From the NCBI RefSeq assembly GCF_006381105.1, contig NZ_VDET01000008.1:62001-126000 (forward strand): DNA of 64,000 nucleotides, read 5' to 3'. A program made the translations under genes and the position numbers. Within the stretch, counting starts at the first letter, position 1. Every line of letters starts with the position of its first letter. The notes beneath the pieces are model-generated. The model was not told the DNA's origin. It made no database searches and saw nothing but the letters and a program-made list of their open reading frames with translations. This document shows positions 8,359-54,175 of the stretch, in pieces. The DNA comes from Flavicella sediminum. GTDB lineage: Bacteria; Bacteroidota; Bacteroidia; Flavobacteriales; Flavobacteriaceae.

Positions 8359-10228
8359 TTTTGGTTTGCATTATTTTTAGTTGTCTGTTGTAAACGTCTT
8401 CTAAACTGGTTTCAAACATGCGTTGTTCGTACCATTTATTGGTTGTTTTTCCAGTTAAATATTTTTCAATCATCAAGCTTGTTATGGGAGCAGCAATGGT
8501 AGATCCATAGCCTCCGTTTTCAATATAAACAGCAATGGCAATTTTCGGATTTTTTTTAGGGGCAAAAGCCACAAATATGGAATGGTCTTCAAATTGAATT
8601 TTTTGATCATTTACACGAACAAAATTTTCTGCTGTTCCTGTTTTTCCGCATATTTCAATATTTTTTAAGCGCACATGCTTTGCTGTACCCGATTTAAATA
8701 CATCATGCATTCCTTCAATGACAGGTGTAAAATGTTTTTTATCAATGGTAGTGTTGTGTACCGTGGTATATAAGCTATCCGTAATATGTACGCCATTCTG
8801 TTTTTTTAGGATGTGTGGTGTATAATAATGTCCTCTGTTGGCAATTGCAGCCGTCATATTGGCAAGTTGAATAGGAGTGGTTAGTATTTGTCCTTGACCA
8901 ATGGCATTTGAAATGGTGTAGGTTGCTCTCCATCGACCATCAGGATACCAATGGTTGTACAAGGCTGCATCTGGAATAAGTCCTCTTTTTCCTTGCGGTA
9001 AATCATAGCCTAAAAATTCTCCCAAGCCAAAACTTTTTACATGTTTGCTCCAAGCATTCATCCCTTCGGAAGCAGTAGGATATTTTTCTATGATACGTCT
9101 ATAAACGTTTGAAAAGTAGCTGTTACAGGATTTAGCAATACCTCGCTGTAATTTGATAGGCATATTATAGATGTTACAGTGACAGCCCATAAAAGCACTT
9201 TCACCAGCACCATAACGATAGCCATGAAAACATCTAAAAGGTGTTTCAGGAGTAATAACTTCTTCTTGTAAACCCACTAAACCTTGAATCATTTTAAATG
9301 GTGATCCAGGCGCATATTGTGCCAACAAACTTCTGTCGTACATGGGTTTGTTAATGGTGTCTCCAAAAAACTGAACAGAGTATTTAGATCGGAGTCGACC
9401 TACCATATAATTAGGATTGTAGCTTGGTGCTGTGATCAATGCTAGAATTTCACCTGTAGCGGGTTCAATGGCTACAATTCCTCCACGTTTTCCTTGTAAA
9501 AGTTGTTCTCCGTATTGTTGGAGCTCGCTGTCTATGGTCAAAGTTAAATCTTGTCCGGCAATAGGTAAAGTGTCGTAGATGCTATTTTTGTAGGGACCGG
9601 TTATTTTATTAAATCGATCGCGCTGCATGTATTTTACACCTTTTACACCTCTTAATTGTTTTTCGTATTGTTTTTCAATACCTGTGGTTCCTATCAATTC
9701 TCCAGCCTGGTAATAAGGATTTTTTCTTGCCGTTTCATCGTTTACTTCATTTACATAGCCTAAAATATTGGCAGCAGAATTTAAAGGGTAATATCGTAAA
9801 GATTTTTTGACAATATAAAACCCAATATACTTGTGCATTTTTTCTTGCAAATAGGCATAGTTTTCTTTAGAAATATGTGCTAGAAATACAGAAGGTAGTC
9901 GTGGGGACCAATGTCTTGCTTTTTCGTATCTTTTTTTAAATGACTCTTTGTCGATTCCAATTAGTTGGCAAAATTCTAAGGTGTCTAAAGGCTGTACTTC
10001 TTTGGGGATAACCATTAAGTTGTACGATTGCTTATCAGTAACTAATAAAACATTATTTCGATCTAAAATATAGCCGCGTTCAGGGTAGTCATAAATTCTT
10101 TTTACGGTAGAACTTTGCAGGGAATTTGTATTGTGTTCCTGATTCACCACTTGTAGAAAAAACAGTTTGGCAATAAAAATACCCGCTGTTAATAGGATAA
10201 AAAATGAAAGTAAGTATCCTCGTTTCAC
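8339..10228 (-). CDS. mrdA: Penicillin-binding protein 2 (class B transpeptidase)
   Basis: Elongation-specific peptidoglycan DD-transpeptidase, 629 aa. It has one N-terminal membrane helix (residues about 6-28), a PBP dimerisation domain with the YPERGYILDRN segment, and a C-terminal transpeptidase domain. The active-site motifs are all present: SxxK at S309-P-F-K312, SxN as SCN in KSCNSYF, and KTG in GKTGTAENF. It acts in the periplasm with RodA, whose gene it overlaps by 20 bp, and is scaffolded by the MreBCD proteins encoded just upstream. Confidence 0.96.
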   Translation of the reverse strand: MKRGYLLSFFILLTAGIFIAKLFFLQVVNQEHNTNSLQSSTVKRIYDYPERGYILDRNNVLLVTDKQSYNLMVIPKEVQPLDTLEFCQLIGIDKESFKKRYEKARHWSPRLPSVFLAHISKENYAYLQEKMHKYIGFYIVKKSLRYYPLNSAANILGYVNEVNDETARKNPYYQAGELIGTTGIEKQYEKQLRGVKGVKYMQRDRFNKITGPYKNSIYDTLPIAGQDLTLTIDSELQQYGEQLLQGKRGGIVAIEPATGEILALITAPSYNPNYMVGRLRSKYSVQFFGDTINKPMYDRSLLAQYAPGSPFKMIQGLVGLQEEVITPETPFRCFHGYRYGAGESAFMGCHCNIYNMPIKLQRGIAKSCNSYFSNVYRRIIEKYPTASEGMNAWSKHVKSFGLGEFLGYDLPQGKRGLIPDAALYNHWYPDGRWRATYTISNAIGQGQILTTPIQLANMTAAIANRGHYYTPHILKKQNGVHITDSLYTTVHNTTIDKKHFTPVIEGMHDVFKSGTAKHVRLKNIEICGKTGTAENFVRVNDQKIQFEDHSIFVAFAPKKNPKIAIAVYIENGGYGSTIAAPITSLMIEKYLTGKTTNKWYEQRMFETSLEDVYNRQLKIMQTKSENTEE

Positions 10229-43020: not shown

Positions 43021-43035
43021 TTTTGTGAATTGAGT

Positions 43036-43266
43036 TTAAGCCAACTCCACAAATAAACCTTCTTCTGTTTTATTAACAGATGCCAAATTATTTTTTGTTA
43101 ATCCTTTTATGGTTTTATCCCATTTTTTATTTGATAATCCTGATTGGGTTTTTAAATCAGCTAAGGCTATTTTCTCAGCTTTTGTTACAATGGCCAATAC
43201 AGATTTTTCTTCCTCGTTCAATTCTACAGAAGGAGCTTTTTTCTCAGGTCTCATTTGAGGGAAGAA
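43036..43266 (-). pseudogene. lysS: Displaced 3' end of lysS (attachment-site copy)
   Basis: A 76-codon remnant of the lysyl-tRNA synthetase C-terminus that reads QMRPEKKAPSVELNEEEK and ends GLFVELA. It aligns without gaps to the 3' end of the intact lysS (52478-52708) with about 29 mismatches in 231 bp, eight of them changing an amino acid. It is followed by a lysS-type terminator and preceded directly by island DNA. The geometry says it is the host's original tail, cut off when the element inserted. Confidence 0.9.
43247..43266 (-). repeat. Attachment-site core, distal copy
   Basis: The 20-bp sequence ggtctcatttgagggaagaa. Homology to the lysS-proximal copy stops exactly at its outer edge (43267), where island DNA begins. 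Confidence 0.8.
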
Positions 43267-45057: not shown

Positions 45058-46101
45058 CTAACTTTCGTCCTTGTAATATATTTTGTAAAATTTTCGTCCG
45101 TCTTTTTCTATTCCTTGTTCTATTAAGTCTTTATCACCATGGATATAGATATGAAAATTTTTATCTAGTTTTAGAACTTTTTTAAAAGCTCTAATTTGTT
45201 TTTTTACAGCTTGTGAAGATATATCGAAATTATCAGAAAGGATTATATCATTAGTGTTCCTATAAGAATTATCAAAACCTTGGAAGGATTCAATTAATTC
45301 TTTGTTTTGGAAAACCGTTTTTTCAAATTCATTTTTTTCAAATTTATCATTCGTTTTAAAATATTCAACAGAACGATTTAATAAGTCAATTTGTTCTGCT
45401 TTTGTTACTTCAAAATCCTCTGTCATCTGCTTTGTAACAAATTGTTTAGTAATCCCTAAGAATTGATTCGTTTGATGAAATTCATTCTTTACAGGCTCAA
45501 CACCTAAGAAGTCATCTTTCCAATATTGTGCTTCAATATTACGATTAGTGTTATCAATAATAGAAAGAATAAAACCAGTTTCTTTTTGAGTATTAAAAAT
45601 TAACACTCCTTTATCTAATTTATTAATGTTAATTCCTTTTCGAGATTCTATTTCAAATCCGTCTATGATTGGTTCAACCTCTAAAAAAGTGTCTTTATTT
45701 TCAGATTTGAATAAACCTATACCATCAAGAATTTCACCATCTAAAACACAGTTTTTAAAATAAACCAAATAAAATTCTCCACCTTTAATTTTAGGATGTG
45801 TACTTTGGTTGTATAAATGTCGAGCGATATTAGATGATTGCTCTATAAGTAAACTAGGGTCTGTGAAAATTTTTGAAGTATAAGAATATGTTTCGTTATA
45901 AGATAATTCTGTATCGTGATAAAAACGATATAGTTCAGCAGATTTGAATTGAGATAAAAAATAATGGGATAGAAGTAGAGTTGTTTCTTTATCAAGAATT
46001 ACCTCTTTTTTTGAAATCACAAAATTTTCATCTGCAACTTTATTCCCAACTTTGTGAACAACAAGCTTCTCAATAGAGGCTTCAATAAAATTAATGGACA
46101 T
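45058..46101 (-). CDS. NdpA/YejK-like nucleoid-associated protein, third gene of the cargo operon
   Basis: Cytosolic protein of 347 aa that fits the 37-kDa nucleoid-associated protein family (NdpA/YejK). Supporting stretches: IEKLVVHKVGNKVADENFVISKKEV at the start, IARHLYNQSTHPKIKGGEFYLVYF, GIGLFKSENKDTFLEV, GININKLDKGVLIFN and SVEYFKTNDKF in the middle, and a C-terminal FHIYIHGDKDLIEQGIEKDGRKFYKIYY. Family members bind DNA. It starts 2 nt after the GAPS4b-like gene stops, so it is co-translated with it. Placed downstream of a nuclease it may be a DNA-bound sensor, a specificity factor or a protector (inference). Family call is from memory. Confidence 0.75.
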   Translation of the reverse strand: MSINFIEASIEKLVVHKVGNKVADENFVISKKEVILDKETTLLLSHYFLSQFKSAELYRFYHDTELSYNETYSYTSKIFTDPSLLIEQSSNIARHLYNQSTHPKIKGGEFYLVYFKNCVLDGEILDGIGLFKSENKDTFLEVEPIIDGFEIESRKGININKLDKGVLIFNTQKETGFILSIIDNTNRNIEAQYWKDDFLGVEPVKNEFHQTNQFLGITKQFVTKQMTEDFEVTKAEQIDLLNRSVEYFKTNDKFEKNEFEKTVFQNKELIESFQGFDNSYRNTNDIILSDNFDISSQAVKKQIRAFKKVLKLDKNFHIYIHGDKDLIEQGIEKDGRKFYKIYYKDES

Positions 46102-46103
46102 AT

Positions 46104-47228
46104 TTAAGAATTCTTAAGTTTATAATCTAAAAAATTATTGTAAACTGTAGATTTTTGTTTATCCATTTCAGACAATAATTTGTGTTTCAGCTTTATTTTA
46201 GCTCTAGTATCTAAAGAGTTATTGGGTTTAAAAGATGAAATGTTTAATTCAAATTCAGACTTCCCACCTTTTTTAGTATAATCAGGAAACCCGAAATCTA
46301 TTGTGAAAGTCCCTGTTTGTCCCTTAAAGTCATAAGAGTAAACAGAGTCTATACTCCATATGATTAAGTGTTTATGATAACTACTGTCCTTTATAAACTC
46401 TTTTTTATCAAGTGATTTACCAGATAAAAGGATTTTATTGAGTTTTTCCATCCATTTTATTTTATCAGGTAAAACAGTGTCTTCAGGTTTAATCGAAAAT
46501 TCTTTTATATCCTGAAAATCAAAATAATCTGAATCTAAACTACTTGTTAACCTAAAGAAAAATATAAAACGTTCTTCATTCGTAAAATCATTAAAGAAAA
46601 TTTTTCTAGGTTCTTCTTTTTGGGCAACTATATTTTTTTCTTTATATTTTTTGATTTGTTGTTTTACTACAAATTCAGCAAGTTCTTTAGTCTCAGGGGC
46701 TGTATGTGATATTATGATTCTTCCCGTTCCAGTCTCATCTTTAATAATCTCAATTTTTGCTTCAAATAAATTAGTTTGTTCATACCAAGATTTGTTTATG
46801 TCATTTCTTTTAATACTAAATTGAGCCCTAAGATGATTGATGTTTGATTCAACCGGTGAAAACCTAATGGGTTGTTCTAATGAACAAGTAGGTAGGTTTA
46901 TTTTTAAAAAATTCTCTACTTCTACTGACATCATATCAGGTACGAATATTTTGGAGTTTTGAACCCAGTTTATGTCACTAGAATTAACTTTAGGGTTATC
47001 TTCTCGTGTAGAAAAAGCTTCTCTTATTTTATCAAACTCGCTTGGAGATAACAATAACGTTTGGAGTAACGGGACCGTGAATTCCTTATCAGAATTTAAT
47101 GCAAAGATTCCTCTCTCTTTTAAAATCCTATTCAATTCTGCTGAAGTTATATACTTTTGATTTACAAACCCTCTTAAATATTCTCCGAAGGGAATTATTT
47201 TTTTTATGTCTTTATGTTCTGAATTCAT
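46104..47228 (-). CDS. GAPS4b-like partner protein of the nuclease
   Basis: Protein of 374 aa with no signal peptide or membrane segment. The N-terminus (IIPFGEYLRGFVNQKYITSAELNRILKERGIFALNSDKE, then TVPLLQTLLLSPSEFDKI) matches what I remember of GAPS4b, the second protein of the two-gene GAPS4 anti-phage system; the helical part resembles an HTH-like fold. The rest is alpha/beta, ending SFKPNNSLDTRAKIKLKHKLLSEMDKQ. It starts 10 nt after the nuclease gene and ends 2 nt before the NdpA-like gene. Mechanism unknown; complex formation with the nuclease is likely. The family call is from memory and was not checked by a search. Confidence 0.65.
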   Translation of the reverse strand: MNSEHKDIKKIIPFGEYLRGFVNQKYITSAELNRILKERGIFALNSDKEFTVPLLQTLLLSPSEFDKIREAFSTREDNPKVNSSDINWVQNSKIFVPDMMSVEVENFLKINLPTCSLEQPIRFSPVESNINHLRAQFSIKRNDINKSWYEQTNLFEAKIEIIKDETGTGRIIISHTAPETKELAEFVVKQQIKKYKEKNIVAQKEEPRKIFFNDFTNEERFIFFFRLTSSLDSDYFDFQDIKEFSIKPEDTVLPDKIKWMEKLNKILLSGKSLDKKEFIKDSSYHKHLIIWSIDSVYSYDFKGQTGTFTIDFGFPDYTKKGGKSEFELNISSFKPNNSLDTRAKIKLKHKLLSEMDKQKSTVYNNFLDYKLKNS

Positions 47229-47238
47229 TTATTAGGAT

Positions 47239-48207
47239 TTAAAAAGCATTAATAGGGTTCATGAAATTAACAACCTTAATATTTTTTGTGTATTCACTTG
47301 CTTGAAACTTCTGTTTTGTTTGAGTCACTATCAAATCGTGTTTTACTTCATCAAAATCATGAAAAGCTATTATAACTTCTCCTACGAGTTCAGTAGAAAT
47401 ATCTTTCGATAGTCCAATAAGTCTCATCAAGTCATCTTCTTCAAAATTATCTATGGTAGCTAGAATTAAAGATTTTTCTTTGTCATTATTTTTGTTGACT
47501 AATTTGATGGGTATAATACTTGAATTTAAATACTCAACAGGTAATATTTTTCCGTCATTTATTCTAGTTATTGGGTTAATATTTTGTCCTGTGTTAGGAT
47601 AATAGAAAGAGTAGTTGTATTTGTCACTTTTCGTTTTAATAAACTTCATTACTTCTAAAATAAAAACAACACGTTTATTATCTAGAATAAAAATCACTTT
47701 ATTGGTGTGAGTATCTAAGACCCTTGAGTTTGAAACAGAACTAATTAAATCATCATTACTTTCAGGGTTATTATTTAACCAAATTAATATTCCAATATCA
47801 TTAACAAATGAAGTTTGGAAACTGGAAATAACGTTGCTCTTGATTTCAGAGCCATCATAACACTCTAATGCAATAATCAAATCATCCATATATTCTTTGA
47901 ATTTTTGAGAAGAGCTATTAGGGTATTTTGATGTTTTGTATTTCGCAGAAATTAATATATTATTAAGTTGACCTGAAACTAAAGGATTTGTATAGGAATA
48001 TAAAAAATCTACACCGTGAGTTTTTCTCGGATTACCATTTTTATTTTTATGTGATTCGTTAAGGCAAGGGATATCAATACCCTTAGATAGATCATTCCAC
48101 CCCACAATTGTGAAAAATTTTTCTACAATATTCTCTCCATATTCCCCAATTTTTTTTGACCATTCTCCCATAAGCTTTTTTTTAGAATTTTCTATAAAAC
48201 TAATCAA
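47239..48207 (-). CDS. PD-(D/E)xK-like nuclease, GAPS4a-like, first gene of the cargo operon
   Basis: Predicted cytosolic nuclease of 322 aa. The N-terminal domain shows a restriction-endonuclease-like core: helix with Glu (GEWSKKIGEYGENIVEKFF, E25/E29), H64-G-V-D67 in KTHGVDFLYSY, and S87-A-K89 in NNILISAKYK, where the usual Glu before x-Lys is Ser. A helix follows with FKEYMDDLIIALECY. This layout is that of GAPS4a as I remember it. The C-terminal half (GILIWLNNN, HTNKVIFILDNKRVVFILEVMKFIK, LILATIDNFEEDDLMRLIGLSKDI) is alpha/beta and of unknown role. Met13 (48171) is a possible alternative start. It heads the three-gene operon and is preceded by a decayed copy of the rep 3' end. Confidence 0.7.
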   Translation of the reverse strand: MISFIENSKKKLMGEWSKKIGEYGENIVEKFFTIVGWNDLSKGIDIPCLNESHKNKNGNPRKTHGVDFLYSYTNPLVSGQLNNILISAKYKTSKYPNSSSQKFKEYMDDLIIALECYDGSEIKSNVISSFQTSFVNDIGILIWLNNNPESNDDLISSVSNSRVLDTHTNKVIFILDNKRVVFILEVMKFIKTKSDKYNYSFYYPNTGQNINPITRINDGKILPVEYLNSSIIPIKLVNKNNDKEKSLILATIDNFEEDDLMRLIGLSKDISTELVGEVIIAFHDFDEVKHDLIVTQTKQKFQASEYTKNIKVVNFMNPINAF

Positions 48208-48247: not shown

Positions 48248-48408
48248 AATGGGACTAGAATATAGACCAAAGTGTCCCTTTGAATAATTAATAGATAAAA
48301 AAAGTTTGTTTTATCATCCAATCCCTTTATTAAGGACGTCTCTAGTGAGTTTTATTTTGTTTCAAGTAAAATACTATTAGTCTTAGATTACATTTTTACT
48401 ACGGTTGT
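48248..48408 (-). pseudogene. Decayed duplicate of the rep gene 3' end and its terminator
   Basis: This stretch aligns to 48471-48673 in the same orientation: the terminator arms (GGGAC/GTCCC here, GGCAC/GTGCC there), the following AATAATTAAT, and then about 100 bp of the rep coding end (shared blocks include TCTCTAGTGAGTTTT and CAAGTAAAATACTATTA). The frame is broken here by stops and shifts, and about 40 bp are missing. It carries no function as a gene. It marks a past recombination or tandem insertion between rep and the cargo operon. Confidence 0.75.
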
Positions 48409-48537: not shown

Positions 48538-49503
48538 TTAATTTATATAATTATATACATTCAAAATATTAATTTTATCATCTAATTCCTTAACTAAGGA
48601 CTTCTCTAGTGAGTTTTTATTGGACTCAAGTAAAATACTATTAACTACATATTTCATTTTACTACGCTTACTCCTTGGGTTTTTGACATCAAAGGTTAAA
48701 TCTGAAATAGAATTAATAACCTTGTCATATCCAACATATGATAAACCACAGGATGCTAAATATTTTAAAACACCGTTGTATTCCTTCAATAAAAAAAGGG
48801 GTTCATTTAAGGATTCGAACTTCATAACTTTATCATATCCATTATCCCATTTTCCTAATAACATATTCCAAGTGTTTTTATTGTAAAGTGTTCTAACCTT
48901 GATTTTCCTTTTTTTTAGATGGTATTTTAAATTTCGTCTTAATCTTATCTCATACCTTATGATGTTTTTATTTCTGATTTCTTTTGAGAAAGTTCTATAA
49001 AGGTCTTTGTCTTTATTTTTAATCTCTTTGATTTTATCATAGAAAATTAAAGATTTAGAAGAATACTTAGTGAAAAATGTAACTGAGTCTTTATACCTAC
49101 AATATTCAAGTCTTGGATAGGATTTAAGGCATTCTATATATTTATGAATAGGATGTTCTAATTCTATATTTACACCAATGTCAACCCTAGTAAGTATTGC
49201 TTTTCTAAAATCTACTCCTAAATTATCCGATATTTCTTTAATCGCTTTCATAGTGCTTTCTCTATCTAATGCCTTAAGATTATTACCGAAATAGAATTTT
49301 GATAATGACCCTCTGAAATAAAACTTGTGAGGTATCTTATCCTCATTACATTTAATCCTAATAGAAAGATTAGACAAAGGGACTACAATTGTAAACCCTC
49401 TGTCATTCTTCCATTCCTTTCCCTCATCTGATTCCATTACATCTTTAATGGATGTAATGTCATCTTTACTTAAGTCCATATAACCACTTATTGTATCAAT
49501 CAT
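48538..49503 (-). CDS. Replication protein of the phage/plasmid gene II/X type
   Basis: Predicted replication initiator of 321 aa, very Lys/Ile/Asn-rich. It resembles the Bacteroidetes members of the filamentous-phage gene II/X replication family: it begins MIDTISGYMDL and shows ILTRVDIGVNIEL (about residues 104-116), KSLIFYDKIKEIKNK (about 148-162) and IIRYEIRLRRNLKYHLKKRK (about 178-197), the motif order of that group. Such proteins nick one strand to start rolling-circle replication, so the element may replicate after excision. Family call is from motif memory; a plasmid Rep of another type is the alternative. Confidence 0.65.
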   Translation of the reverse strand: MIDTISGYMDLSKDDITSIKDVMESDEGKEWKNDRGFTIVVPLSNLSIRIKCNEDKIPHKFYFRGSLSKFYFGNNLKALDRESTMKAIKEISDNLGVDFRKAILTRVDIGVNIELEHPIHKYIECLKSYPRLEYCRYKDSVTFFTKYSSKSLIFYDKIKEIKNKDKDLYRTFSKEIRNKNIIRYEIRLRRNLKYHLKKRKIKVRTLYNKNTWNMLLGKWDNGYDKVMKFESLNEPLFLLKEYNGVLKYLASCGLSYVGYDKVINSISDLTFDVKNPRSKRSKMKYVVNSILLESNKNSLEKSLVKELDDKINILNVYNYIN

Positions 49504-50138: not shown

Positions 50139-50438
50139 CTAGTTTTTTAAGTTTATTAAAGTGTTGGATACAAGAGTGTCAACCTCATCATTAGTTTTGA
50201 TAGGATTACTCAGAATAAAGTTTTCTAAATCCCTCCGTTTGATAAAGATTAGTTTTCCTGAGGGTTTGGAATGGGGGAGTTGTTTGGAACCAACCAACTT
50301 TTGCATATAGGAAAGACTTACTCCTATTACAAATGCCGATTCTTTAATTGTGTAGATACGTTTCCGATAAAGATGACTTTTCTTTATCTCACGTTTGAGA
50401 GATTTTACCTCTTTTACTAATTCTTTGATCTTGACCAT
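50139..50438 (-). CDS. Helix-turn-helix protein, excisionase-like
   Basis: DNA-binding protein of 99 aa. A charged N-terminal helix is followed by a MerR-like winged HTH of the HTH_17/excisionase type: IYTIKESAFVIGVSLSYMQKLVGSKQLPHSKPSGKLIFIKRRDLENFI (residues about 28-76). Proteins of this kind are regularly found in Bacteroidetes integrative elements and act as excisionases or replication-gene activators. It is co-directional with the integrase and rep genes. Confidence 0.8.
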   Translation of the reverse strand: MVKIKELVKEVKSLKREIKKSHLYRKRIYTIKESAFVIGVSLSYMQKLVGSKQLPHSKPSGKLIFIKRRDLENFILSNPIKTNDEVDTLVSNTLINLKN

Positions 50439-51223: not shown

Positions 51224-52294
51224 CTAAAATTCTAAATTCAACATACTGTTTACTGCCCTTTGTTTTTCTTCATCAATTACCTTAGCATATACCTGTGTAC
51301 TTTTTATATCCTTGTGACCCATTAGTTTTGATACTGTGAATATATTAATTCCTGAACTAACTAATAAGGTTGCGAATGTATGTCGTGCACAATGAAAGTG
51401 TACCTTTTTGTCTATTTCTGCTAATTTAATAAGTTTTTTTATAGTTCTATTCATTGAACAGATATGTTCAGAAAGATTAAATACGGATTCCTTATTATGT
51501 TTTTGGTTTAATAATATATTATTACAAGTTTGGTTTAAGGGTATTCGAACAATGTTTTTTGTTTTTTTCTGTTTGAGTTGAATAGTGTTATCTTTTATAT
51601 CAGTCCATTTTAAAGCCTTAATATCTGAAGCCCTTAATCCACTATAACAACTGAATAAAAAAGCATTCTTTGATTCATTATCCCAAAAGGGAGTGTCATT
51701 TACTTTTTGAATTTCTTTTTTAGTCAAATAAACAATTTCGGTTTCTTCTTTTTTAGGTCTTTCTATATATCTCATAGGGTTTTCGACTATGATATTATCC
51801 TTAATAGCCTTATTGAGAGTTGCGTTTATTTTATTGATATAGGTTACAATAGAATTATTAGAAAGATTTTGTTCCTTTAAGTGAATAATAAAATTTTCAA
51901 TCCAATTTTTAGAGATATTTTCAAAGGTTAACCTTTTACCTTGAAACTCTACTAAATGTTTTAAGGTAGTGTCCCAAGTTGATTTAGTGTTTCCATCTTT
52001 AGTATTACCGAAATTCTCAAAGTATAGAATAAAATTGGCTTTTTGTAGTTGTCTTGATACCAAACCATTTTTTTTATTACCTAATTCGATTTCTAGTTTA
52101 GCCCTTACTGTTTCAACTATTCTATCTTTTTGTTTTTTTTCTTCTTTGGAGTCGGTAGGGTAGTAGGTTATATCTTTTACGGTTTCTCTTGCCCTTTTAC
52201 CGTCAGAGATATAATCTAGTTGTTTTTTATAAGGACGATTTTTTTTAGATAATGATTTATTACCAATGTACCTTATTCTTAAGTTTACTGACAT
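51224..52294 (-). CDS. Tyrosine recombinase (integrase) of the lysS island
   Basis: Site-specific recombinase of 356 aa. It has an N-terminal arm-binding domain (about residues 1-60), a SAM-like core-binding domain (TWDTTLKHLVEFQGKRLTFENISKNW) and a C-terminal catalytic domain with Arg (SCYSGLRASDIKAL), His-x-x-Arg (FHCARHTFATLL), His (LMGHKDIKSTQVY) and the Tyr in QVYAKV. The frame is open to 52414, but the ATG at 52294 (MSVNLRIRYI) gives the family N-terminus, and the lysS terminator lies inside the longer frame. Its position directly beside the lysS tail fits an integrase adjacent to its attachment site. Confidence 0.92.
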   Translation of the reverse strand: MSVNLRIRYIGNKSLSKKNRPYKKQLDYISDGKRARETVKDITYYPTDSKEEKKQKDRIVETVRAKLEIELGNKKNGLVSRQLQKANFILYFENFGNTKDGNTKSTWDTTLKHLVEFQGKRLTFENISKNWIENFIIHLKEQNLSNNSIVTYINKINATLNKAIKDNIIVENPMRYIERPKKEETEIVYLTKKEIQKVNDTPFWDNESKNAFLFSCYSGLRASDIKALKWTDIKDNTIQLKQKKTKNIVRIPLNQTCNNILLNQKHNKESVFNLSEHICSMNRTIKKLIKLAEIDKKVHFHCARHTFATLLVSSGINIFTVSKLMGHKDIKSTQVYAKVIDEEKQRAVNSMLNLEF

Positions 52295-52341
52295 ATCATT
52301 TTGTTTTAGTGTTCTAAATTTAATAGATAATAACGACTCAA

Positions 52342-52357
52342 GTGACAGATAAGTGAC
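52342..52357. repeat. Paired GTGAC repeat at the integrase end, possible arm site
   Basis: GTGACAGATAAGTGAC, 14 of 16 bases identical to 43328-43343. The overlapping CAGATAA (52346-52352) recurs inverted as TTATCTG at 52371-52377 and 52381-52387. These short repeats upstream of the integrase are the kind of sites bound by integrase arms or an excisionase. Confidence 0.5.
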
Positions 52358-52390
52358 ACTATTTAGTATGTTATCTGCTATTATCTGCAA

Positions 52391-52419
52391 CAAAAATAGG
52401 TTGCCGAGTGGCAACCTAT
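52391..52419 (-). terminator. Terminator of the restored lysS, supplied by the island
   Basis: A 10-bp perfect stem (ATAGGTTGCC, 52396-52405 with 52410-52419), 4-nt loop, then five T on the minus strand. It lies 59 nt after the lysS stop and replaces the original terminator at 42985-43020. Confidence 0.85.
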
Positions 52420-52477
52420 GATGAGTATAAACTAGGTACTTAATAAGTACTAAGTTATAATGATATGATAATTGGAA

Positions 52478-54175
52478 CTAAACCAACTCTACAAATAAAC
52501 CTTCTTCTGTTTTATTTACAGATGCCAAATTGTTCTTAGTCAGTCCTTTAATGGTTTTGTCCCATTTTTTATTTGATAATCCTGATTTGGTTTTTAAATC
52601 CGATAACCCGATTTTCTCAGCTTTTTCTATAATTGCCAATACAGATTTCTCTTCCTCATTCAATTCAACTGTTGAAGCTTTTTTCTCTGGTCTCATTTGA
52701 GGGAAGAACAATACTTCTTGAATTGATTGATTGTTGGTTAAATACATGATCAAACGGTCCATTCCAATTCCTAAACCAGATGTAGGTGGCATTCCGTATT
52801 CTAAGGCTCGTAAGAAATCTTCATCAATAAAGTTTGATGCTTCGTCATCACCTCTTTCTGCTAGTTTCAATTGCGCTTCAAAACGTTCTCTTTGATCTAT
52901 TGGATCATTCAACTCAGAATAGGCGTTGGCAACTTCTTTACCACAAATCATTAACTCAAAACGCTCTGTTAATTCAGGATTGTCCCTATGTTCTTTACAT
53001 AAGGGAGACATTTCTTTCGGATAGTCGGTAATAAAGGTTGGTTGAATGTAATTTCCTTCACATTTTTCTCCAAACATTTCATCAATCAACTTTCCTTTCC
53101 CCATGGTATTGTCAACTTCAATACCCATCTCTATGGCCGCAGCTCTTAATTCATCTTCATTTTTACCGGTAATATCAAAACCTGTAAAATGTTTGATAGA
53201 ATCTGCCATGGTAATTCTTGCAAATGGCGCTTTAAAGCTAACTTCATGTTCTCCAAAAACAACATCTGTAGTTCCGTTCACTGCTAGTGCACAATGCTCT
53301 AACAAGTTTTCGGTAAATTCCATCATCCAGTTGTAATCTTTATAAGCCACATATATTTCCATGGCCGTAAACTCTGGGTTGTGCGTTCTGTCCATACCTT
53401 CGTTACGAAAGTTTTTAGAAAACTCGTACACCCCATCAAAACCACCAACAATTAATCGTTTTAAATACAATTCATTGGCAATACGCATATACAACGGAAT
53501 GTCTAATGAATTGTGATGTGTGATAAACGGTCTTGCTGATGCACCCCCTGCAATAGGTTGCAAAACTGGCGTTTCTACCTCAAAATATCCAGCTTCGTTA
53601 AAGAAATTTCGCATGGCGTTGAATAACTTTGTACGCTTTACAAATACTTCTTTTACATGTGGGTTCACTACTAAATCGGCGTAACGCTGACGGTAGCGCA
53701 ATTCAGGATCGTTAAATTCATCGTATGTTTTTCCTTCGGCATCCGTTTTTGGTAAAGGCAAAGGTTTTAAAGCTTTACTCAATAATTTAAAAGTGCTTAC
53801 TTTTACTGAAATTTCACCTACTTGTGTTTTAAATAACACACCTTCAATTCCAACAAAATCTCCTAAGTCCAATAATTTTTTAAAAACATCATTGTACAAA
53901 GTTTTGTCTTCATCCGGACAAATTTCATCTCTATTTAAATAGATTTGAATTCTTCCTTCCGCATCTTGTATTTCTGCAAAGGAAGCTTTTCCTTGAATCT
54001 TCTTTCGCATTAAACGTCCAGCAAGAACAACTTTTTTCCCTTCTACATAATTTTCCTTAATCTGTTTAGAATAAATATCTACAGGAAATAAATCCGCAGG
54101 ATAAGGGTTGATTCCCAAAGCTCTTAATTTGTCAAGCTTTTCTCTTCTTACAATTTCTTGTTCTGATAATTGCAT
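52478..54175 (-). CDS. lysS: Lysyl-tRNA synthetase, class II, with an island-supplied C-terminus
   Basis: Charges tRNA-Lys in the cytosol; 565 aa. An N-terminal OB-fold anticodon-binding domain (VVLAGRLMRKKIQGKASFAEIQDAEGRIQIYL) is followed by the class II core: motif 2 FRNEGMDRTHNPEF and motif 3 GLGIGMDRLIMYL. The last about 70 residues after QMRPEKK form a flavobacterial C-terminal extension. The mobile element inserted at the codons for that junction; the last 231 bp are probably the element's own copy, so the gene is a chimera that keeps the full frame. On the minus strand a TATCTTTG -7 box lies at 54213-54220, about 38 nt before the ATG. Confidence 0.96.
   Translation of the reverse strand: MQLSEQEIVRREKLDKLRALGINPYPADLFPVDIYSKQIKENYVEGKKVVLAGRLMRKKIQGKASFAEIQDAEGRIQIYLNRDEICPDEDKTLYNDVFKKLLDLGDFVGIEGVLFKTQVGEISVKVSTFKLLSKALKPLPLPKTDAEGKTYDEFNDPELRYRQRYADLVVNPHVKEVFVKRTKLFNAMRNFFNEAGYFEVETPVLQPIAGGASARPFITHHNSLDIPLYMRIANELYLKRLIVGGFDGVYEFSKNFRNEGMDRTHNPEFTAMEIYVAYKDYNWMMEFTENLLEHCALAVNGTTDVVFGEHEVSFKAPFARITMADSIKHFTGFDITGKNEDELRAAAIEMGIEVDNTMGKGKLIDEMFGEKCEGNYIQPTFITDYPKEMSPLCKEHRDNPELTERFELMICGKEVANAYSELNDPIDQRERFEAQLKLAERGDDEASNFIDEDFLRALEYGMPPTSGLGIGMDRLIMYLTNNQSIQEVLFFPQMRPEKKASTVELNEEEKSVLAIIEKAEKIGLSDLKTKSGLSNKKWDKTIKGLTKNNLASVNKTEEGLFVELV
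52689..52708 (-). repeat. Attachment-site core, copy inside intact lysS
   Basis: The same 20 bp as at 43247-43266. It codes for part of the FFPQMRP junction just before the C-terminal extension of LysS. Confidence 0.8.

What the first reader, a model, noticed from the sequence alone, without database searches (positions are those of the whole stretch)
45058..48207. Candidate three-gene defence operon: GAPS4a/b-like pair plus an NdpA-like DNA-binding protein
Seen: three genes on one strand with gaps of 10 and 2 nt, inside an integrase-bearing island. The first has a restriction-endonuclease-like core (E25/E29, H64-GV-D67, S87-A-K89); the second begins like GAPS4b; the third fits the NdpA/YejK family. 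Established: GAPS4 is described as a two-gene anti-phage system found on mobile elements. Inference: the co-translated NdpA-like gene is a third component, which could sense invading DNA, direct the nuclease, or shield the host nucleoid. I know of no described system with this composition. Also notable is the Ser in place of Glu before the catalytic Lys.
Basis: partly seen in the sequence, partly recalled or inferred. Interest (0 to 1): 0.8.

Follow-up and report, generated by a model that had tools for sequence, protein, structure and literature searches.

The report
GAPS4 defence operon with nucleoid protein
A mobile DNA island in a bacterium carries a known two-gene anti-phage system plus a third gene for a chromosome-coating (nucleoid) protein, and related genomes show the same kind of protein joined repeatedly to this and to other defence systems, so it is probably a working part and not a passenger.

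Summary
Observation confirmed. The genes are GapS4a (NF047933, 361 bits), GapS4b (NF047934, 364 bits) and NA37/YejK-NdpA (PF04245, 118 bits), gaps 10 and 2 nt, in an integrase island whose ends are repeats 9.4 kb apart. NA37 is a recurrent third gene: it directly follows GapS4b in 5 of 7 Bacteroidota genomes found by searching for GapS4b alone (4 of 5 over the cut-off) and in 0 of 2 plasmids; base rate 22 NA37 genes in 109 genomes. It was joined or replaced more than once: window, L073 and L085 share one GapS4ab clade, yet one clade for their NA37 is rejected (p = 2e-5). In four loci with a common downstream flank, NA37 differs with the upstream module while the next gene, 5 nt on, stays 81-91% identical. 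NA37 also ends some Lamassu and RelA/SpoT operons. In five relatives a decayed GapS4a core is fused to a Cap4-like nuclease domain, NA37 kept. Most likely NA37 is a DNA-side control subunit; mechanism inferred. A YejK-domain defence unit was validated in E. coli in 2026 (PMC13092281), so: new variant of a known kind.

The parts
47239..48207 (-). gapS4a, putative PD-(D/E)XK-like nuclease subunit; likely true start ATG at 48171
   Evidence: NF047933 361 bits; invariant E15, E25, D67, S87, K89 in 11 of 11; the nuclease reading rests on residues, no fold was predicted
46104..47228 (-). gapS4b, second core subunit, fold unknown
   Evidence: NF047934 364 bits; model pLDDT 69.8, no Foldseek match under 1e-3
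45058..46101 (-). NA37 / YejK-NdpA nucleoid-associated protein, third gene
   Evidence: PF04245 118 bits; model pLDDT 87.1; E. coli YejK 9be2 is the only PDB match under 1e-3: E 2.9e-9, TM 0.45, Z 14.3 over 274 residues, rmsd 9.1
51224..52414 (-). tyrosine integrase of the island
   Evidence: PF00589 2.6e-23, PF13102 2.5e-19
50139..50438 (-). excisionase-like HTH protein
   Evidence: TIGR01764 29.4 bits, cut-off 28.8; PF12728 30.6, cut-off 27
48538..49503 (-). G2P-like replication initiator of the island
   Evidence: PF05144 Phage_CRI 1.1e-12, 48.6 bits, cut-off 21.7
52470..52708 (.). attachment-site-like repeat at the integrase side: 3' end of a lysyl-tRNA synthetase gene (52478-54175; gene name recognised by eye)
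   Evidence: 239-nt direct repeat, 87% identical, spacing 9442
43028..43266 (.). attachment-site-like repeat at the far side: 72-codon remnant of the same gene end
   Evidence: ORF 43036-43254

Best explanation
This is a GAPS4 anti-phage system of a three-gene form found in Bacteroidota. GapS4a and GapS4b are the core: GapS4a carries the nuclease site, GapS4b is the partner it needs. The NA37 protein is a real accessory subunit that binds DNA or coated DNA and decides where or when the core acts: it probably holds the core inactive on the host nucleoid and lets it act when phage DNA or phage-driven damage to the nucleoid is met. Shown: family membership, operon layout, repeated linkage, inheritance of NA37 with its module over short times. 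Inferred: nuclease activity, physical contact, DNA binding by this NA37, and the on/off logic. My split: NA37 is a functional part of the system about 0.8; DNA-side control of the core as described about 0.4.
For: GapS4b searched for alone: NA37 is the next gene in 5 of 7 Bacteroidota genomes (own, G285, G253, G654, G012; not G324, G154), or 4 of the 5 whose GapS4b is over the cut-off; NA37 is rare (22 copies in 109 genomes). Eight separate and five fused GAPS4 loci end in NA37, with spacing -4 to +13 nt in 12 of 13 (L008 is -23 by its longest ORF). Repeated joining or replacement: AU test rejects one NA37 clade for window, L073, L085 (p 2.0e-5) although their GapS4ab form one clade at 100/100 and are 57-65% identical; all eight GAPS4 NA37 as one clade rejected (p 1.1e-5). 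In L028, L042, L068 and L075, which share their downstream flank, NA37 is 47-56% identical between module types and 80% within one, while the next gene is 81-91% identical throughout. The fused form has lost K89 in 5 of 5, has no aligned counterpart of the E15-E25 segment, carries a Cap4-like domain (PDLC00735 8.1e-14, tested for L063) and keeps NA37. NA37 also follows Lamassu genes. The host has another, lone NA37, only 36% identical. A unit with a YejK domain protects E. coli from phage (PMC13092281 section 5).
Against: GapS4ab occurs without NA37 in L010, L011, L013 and L014, so the core can persist alone. NA37 also follows a RelA/SpoT synthetase (Pfam for L033), which is not a nuclease, so nuclease control cannot be its only job. 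Only 1 of 30 LmuB loci examined has NA37 beside it (one, L112, had too little DNA to tell). Many NA37 genes stand alone: 41 of 76 judged loci have no same-strand upstream neighbour within -60 to +30 nt, and some lone ones (L051, L055, L094) lie beside GAPS4-linked ones in the tree, so gain and loss cannot be told apart. No DNA binding, contact or protection was tested. In the ICE precedent NdpA2 by itself did not shift DNA (PMC8565334 passages).
Confidence: 0.6

Rival explanations
1. NA37 is a transcription regulator (silencer or counter-silencer) of the operon or island, as NdpA2 is for the ICE PAPI-1, and takes no part in the strike itself.
For: NdpA2, a YejK-family protein on an ICE, acts with TprA and raises MvaT affinity for a promoter; its loss lowers ICE transfer 40-fold in strain M0 (PMC8565334 passages). 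NA37 is also carried by phages. Fits non-nuclease partners such as RelA/SpoT.
Against: NA37 is the last gene of the operon and in four loci goes with the upstream module, not with the shared flank. I looked for no operator sites; the promoter scans showed nothing clear before gapS4a.
Confidence: 0.2
2. NA37 shields host DNA or restrains the nuclease, that is, an immunity or safety gene for the host.
For: 14 of the 24 module-linked loci have nuclease-type modules (10 GAPS4 or fused, 4 Lamassu); a further one, L049, follows a Res-like endonuclease gene.
Against: GapS4ab without NA37 exists; the RelA/SpoT operons have no evident nuclease (other members by clustering).
Confidence: 0.15
3. Passenger: NA37 is frequent island cargo or a recombination anchor and sits beside GAPS4 by repeated insertion in a hot spot.
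For: NA37 is carried by phages and viral contigs, and different modules with NA37 lie before one shared transposon flank.
Against: Before that flank NA37 differs with the module (47-56%) while the gene 5 nt downstream is 81-91% identical, the reverse of what an anchor would show; same order and strand in 13 of 13 GAPS4-NA37 loci; base rate 22 in 109 genomes.
Confidence: 0.05

Closest known systems
GAPS4 (GapS4a/GapS4b, NCBIfam NF047933/NF047934)
   Same: Both subunits over curated cut-offs, on a mobile element
   Different: Adds a third NA37 gene; recalled as a two-gene system from Mahata et al. 2024, whose text I did not see (only its citation)
YejK / NdpA nucleoid-associated proteins (PF04245; PDB 9be2)
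   Same: Profile, and fold as far as a predicted model shows
   Different: Linked to a defence operon, 36% identical to the lone copy of the same genome
Defence unit with a YejK domain, DefensePredictor (PMC13092281)
   Same: YejK domain in a phage-protective transcription unit
   Different: Its partner genes, if any, are not given in the parts I read; whether it is a GAPS4 or Lamassu relative is unknown
Lamassu (LmuA-LmuC-LmuB) followed by NA37: L027, L028, L048, L071, L082
   Same: Last-gene NA37 in a defence operon (PADLOC for L027; the rest by clustering)
   Different: SMC-like core; NA37 is rare beside LmuB in general (1 of 30 loci)
Nuclease-protease pairs acquired by several immune systems (PMC12799240)
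   Same: One gene set recruited repeatedly by unrelated defence systems (abstract and introduction seen)
   Different: Different proteins; that work showed the mechanism by experiment

Membership tests
GAPS4 | GapS4a profile over cut-off | tested here: met
   361.2 bits vs 270
GAPS4 | GapS4b profile over cut-off, adjacent and same strand | tested here: met
   363.7 bits vs 300; 10-nt gap
GAPS4 | Nuclease-like conserved residues in GapS4a | tested here: met
   E15, E25, D67, S87, K89 identical in 11 of 11 separate proteins; fold and activity not tested
GAPS4 | Two-gene composition (recalled, not seen in print) | tested here: inconclusive
   Both core genes are present and intact, but a third gene follows 2 nt downstream: a variant form; GapS4ab pairs without it also occur
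GAPS4 | Protection against phage | not testable with these tools
   needs plaque assays
NA37 / YejK-NdpA | PF04245 over gathering score | tested here: met
   118.4 vs 24.6 bits
NA37 / YejK-NdpA | YejK fold | tested here: met
   9be2: Foldseek 2.9e-9, TM 0.45/0.47; Z 14.3, rmsd 9.1 over 274 residues; next row Z 4.8. The large rmsd suggests a different domain arrangement in the model
NA37 / YejK-NdpA | Nucleoid or DNA binding | not testable with these tools
   -
Kiwa (KwaB) | KwaB similarity of the NA37 gene | tested here: inconclusive
   No KwaB among PADLOC matches up to E = 1; no Kiwa chain among the listed fold matches

The most novel reading that the evidence does not exclude
NA37 is an exchangeable control module of bacterial immunity: a nucleoid-bound guard that watches the state of the chromosome and can be wired to unrelated effectors (GapS4 nuclease, Cap4-like fusion, Lamassu, RelA/SpoT synthetase, membrane proteins), so that phage attack on the nucleoid or a phage's own NA37 protein triggers the attached effector.
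Probability: 0.3. Interest if true: 0.82.

Novelty: new variant of a known kind. Interest (0 to 1): 0.6.

Why it matters
It ties an old, poorly understood chromosome protein family to immunity in a way that can be tested at once, and suggests that several defence systems share a removable last gene. It also gives a natural dissection of GAPS4: a form in which the GapS4a nuclease site has decayed and a Cap4-like nuclease domain is fused in front, while GapS4b and NA37 stay, which points to GapS4b plus NA37 as the recognition side.

Tried and rejected
GapS4b of the window found nothing in viral contigs or phages. Profile searches of solved structures gave nothing credible for the three proteins (E 0.07 to 0.44), not even YejK, which only the fold comparison found. 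The GapS4b model is poor (pLDDT 69.8, pTM 0.44); weak START/Bet v 1-like matches (best E 6e-3) are not used. No Kiwa structure is among the listed fold matches of the NA37 model. Recombination-anchor idea for NA37: speaks against it. NA37 as a general Lamassu part: not borne out, 1 of 30 LmuB loci; the LmuB profile rings in 394 of 395 genomes and all 14 controls through kin of SMC type, so only the 30 loci kept (E up to 3e-27) were examined. Bacillota NA37: two of four plasmid-record hits examined, neighbours look like housekeeping genes. No promoter of the Bacteroidota pattern lies just before gapS4a, and sigma-70-like sites are 29 against 21.4 expected (sd 4.7). Papers: no hit on GAPS4 as a defence system came up (the listed hits of 8 and 82 are physics, materials, ecology and the like, of which I saw the listing only); NdpA with defence or Lamassu gave no listed paper that describes this link (listings); YejK with defence and phage gave PMC13092281. 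Rows dropped: L048 (NA37 broken) from the NA37 tree; L059 (GapS4a/b broken) from the GapS4ab tree.
Full report
What is there. Three minus-strand genes at 45058-48207, gaps 10 and 2 nt. NCBIfam names the first two clearly: GapS4a (361.2 bits, cut-off 270) and GapS4b (363.7, cut-off 300). The third is NA37, the YejK/NdpA nucleoid-associated family (118.4 bits, cut-off 24.6). AlphaFold2 on a 34-sequence alignment gave the NA37 protein at mean pLDDT 87.1; the only PDB match under 1e-3 is E. coli YejK (9be2; E 2.9e-9, TM 0.45; Z 14.3 with rmsd 9.1 over 274 residues; next row Z 4.8). GapS4b did not fold well. PADLOC 2023 does not recognise GapS4a or GapS4b.

GapS4a is probably 12 residues shorter, starting at the ATG at 48171. 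Across 11 separate GapS4a proteins E15, E25, D67, S87 and K89 never vary and E22 is D once; H64 is H or N, and E29 is not conserved. The Ser before Lys is thus the family's normal form.

The island. A 239-nt direct repeat (87% identical) at 43028-43266 and 52470-52708, spacing 9442, is the 3' end of a gene that I recognise by eye as lysS (lysyl-tRNA synthetase; ORFs). Between the copies lie a tyrosine integrase, an excisionase-like protein, a G2P-like replication initiator and the operon. This looks like a small integrative element with the defence operon as cargo. The genome has a second, lone NA37 on another contig, beside what reads as glnS (label by eye), 36% identical to the island copy.

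Is the third gene linked? Searching for GapS4b alone in 395 genomes of the phylum, 296 relatives and 397 of the family (overlapping sets) gave seven genomes in all at E up to 1e-3. NA37 is the next gene in five: the window's, G285, G253, G654 and G012; not in G324 or G154. Five of the seven are over the curated cut-off, and of these four have NA37; G012 (fused form) and G154 are under it. Two plasmids, of Pantoea and Ewingella, carry GapS4ab without it. NA37 is not common: 22 copies in 20 of 109 genomes of the phylum, and the two genomes with two copies (own, G012) are both GAPS4 carriers. With a few thousand genes per genome, 4 of 6 adjacent outside the window is far beyond chance, even if G285 and G253, whose GapS4ab are close, count once.

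More loci. Ten have GapS4a/b directly upstream: six as separate genes (L042, L059, L064, L073, L077, L085; L059 has both core genes broken) and four fused (L063, L068, L075, L096). L042 and L064 are the same loci as G253 and G654. With the window, G285 and G012 this makes 13 distinct GAPS4-NA37 loci: eight separate and five fused.

The fused form. In L012, L063, L068, L075 and L096 one protein of 892-897 residues holds an N-terminal domain, a GapS4a-like part and a GapS4b-like part. The N-terminal domain of L063 matches a PADLOC CBASS endonuclease effector (8.1e-14, residues 1-98); the other four align with it. In the GapS4a part K89 is replaced in 5 of 5 and the segment with E15, E22 and E25 has no aligned counterpart, while D67 stays in 3 of 5. 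I read this as a decayed nuclease site replaced by a new domain in cis, with GapS4b and NA37 kept. This is an inference; it fits GapS4a as nuclease and shows that NA37 is not tied to that site.

NA37 with other modules. Of the 80 loci, 4 could not be judged; 35 of the other 76 have an upstream neighbour on the same strand within -60 to +30 nt. These are 10 GAPS4, 4 Lamassu (a fifth, L048, has a broken NA37), 4 with the order NA37, RelA/SpoT, NA37, 4 with a DUF6731-like gene and a small protein that reads by eye as membrane-bound, 2 with two unknown genes of about 350 and 500 residues, and 11 others, three of them a TerC-like gene (label from memory) in Pedobacter-type loci and one a Res-like endonuclease (L049). 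Only one member of each kind was named by profile: L027 (LmuA 4.5e-49, LmuB 4.2e-83, LmuC 6.2e-7), L033 (RelA_SpoT 67 bits, NA37 72 bits) and L030 (DUF6731 23 bits, under its cut-off of 27); the rest were assigned by clustering. The reverse does not hold for Lamassu: of 30 LmuB loci taken from 395 genomes only L125 has NA37 beside it.

History. In a tree of 83 NA37 proteins the separate-GAPS4 ones need four changes of label, all four forced by well-supported branches; the fused ones need one. The clearest case: window, L073 and L085 have GapS4ab of one clade (100/100, 57-65% identical), but an AU test rejects one clade for their NA37 proteins (p 2.0e-5). The window's NA37 is nearest to NA37 genes of two Chitinophagaceae (62%, L023 and L024, no close defence partner seen), the other two to Bacteroidales NA37. 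One clade for all eight is rejected too (p 1.1e-5). So NA37 was joined, or replaced by another NA37, more than once at the same place. These groups were tested after the tree was seen, which makes the p values generous; the identities say the same. Lone NA37 genes lie beside GAPS4-linked ones in places (L051, L055, L094), so gains and losses cannot be told apart.

A natural experiment. L028 (Lamassu), L042 (GAPS4), L068 and L075 (fused GAPS4) hold their modules before the same 266-residue gene (PADLOC PD-Lambda-3_B and Pfam Hypoth_Ymh for L042) and the same three following genes, which I take by eye for conjugative-transposon genes. L042, L068 and L075 also share genes upstream; L028 has other genes in the 4.4 kb seen there. 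The 266-residue gene is 81-91% identical in all six pairs. NA37, which ends 5 nt before it, is 47-56% identical between module types and 80% between the two fused loci. The exchange boundary thus lies behind NA37: module and NA37 move as a unit. This speaks against a passenger or a recombination anchor.

How it may work. I take GapS4ab as core and NA37 as a DNA-side control part. For: fold, partners that are in good part nucleases (14 of 24 module-linked loci), retention through a nuclease change, repeated joining. Against a purely nuclease-directed role: the RelA/SpoT operons. This favours a more general role, sensing or licensing, over shielding. The regulator rival has a true precedent: NdpA2 on the ICE PAPI-1 acts on transfer genes with TprA and MvaT (PMC8565334, passages seen). 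Phages carry NA37 as well: 23 phage records, of which 19 from Polaribacter and Tenacibaculum and 4 labelled Listeria, and 21 viral contigs, 16 with a long match; so a role of phage NA37 as trigger or counter-measure is open.

What is known. DefensePredictor (PMC13092281; section 5 read) tested 94 units in E. coli, validated 42, and lists a YejK nucleoid-associated domain among domains not validated in defence before. That shows a YejK-family domain in a protective unit, though the parts I read do not give its partners. Recurrent acquisition of one gene pair by unrelated defence systems has been shown for nuclease-protease pairs (PMC12799240, abstract and introduction seen). I found no paper in the library that describes GAPS4 with NA37 or NA37 with Lamassu (searches; listings only except as stated); the original GAPS4 paper did not come up and its content is recalled.

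Verdict. Mechanism unproven. Interest 0.6.

Noticed in passing
L012 8594-11281 (minus strand), L063 5314-8001, L068 5323-8004, L075 5326-8004, L096 5308-8001: Fused protein of 892-897 residues: Cap4-like nuclease domain + decayed GapS4a + GapS4b, followed by NA37.
   Followed up: partly
L033 5968-9047, L045 268-3349, L072 5920-9044, L076 5965-9047; also L065 5732-8987: Operon NA37-like gene, RelA/SpoT synthetase, NA37 (in L065 NA37, unknown 398-residue gene, NA37): looks like a defence candidate.
   Followed up: partly
L030 6513-9029, L041 3-2344, L070 6548-9020, L095 6618-9017; similar layout in L067, L084 and viral contig L149: DUF6731-like gene, small protein that reads as membrane-bound, NA37 in tight order; L030 matches PADLOC candidate PDC-M67A at 1e-5.
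   Followed up: partly
L028, L042, L068, L075 around 9038-9850: One transposon flank with different defence modules before a constant PD-Lambda-3_B/Hypoth_Ymh gene.
   Followed up: yes
window 48291-48396 and 48555-48660: 106-nt direct repeat (77%): a copy of the 3' end of the replication initiator gene lies between that gene and the GAPS4 operon, perhaps a scar of cargo insertion.
   Followed up: no
L122 (own genome, contig C12 1347569-1349575): The same genome carries an LmuB-like gene (349 bits) with no NA37 within 1.5 kb.
   Followed up: partly
phage records H9-H28 (20 of 23 listed) and viral contigs L141-L156: Phages and viral contigs encode NA37; in the six viral contigs whose genes I listed it often lies among what look like early genes. 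Could be a trigger, a decoy or a counter-silencer.
   Followed up: no
L059 5941-7998: GapS4a and GapS4b are both broken while the NA37 that follows is open.
   Followed up: no
L049 1-3588 (NA37 clade L049, L054, L056, L058): In L049 NA37 starts directly after a gene ending in a Res-like endonuclease domain (PF19778).
   Followed up: no
L008 10441-12993: In G285 the gene after the GAPS4-NA37 operon matches PADLOC TmtA (1e-147), so several defence genes lie together there.
   Followed up: no
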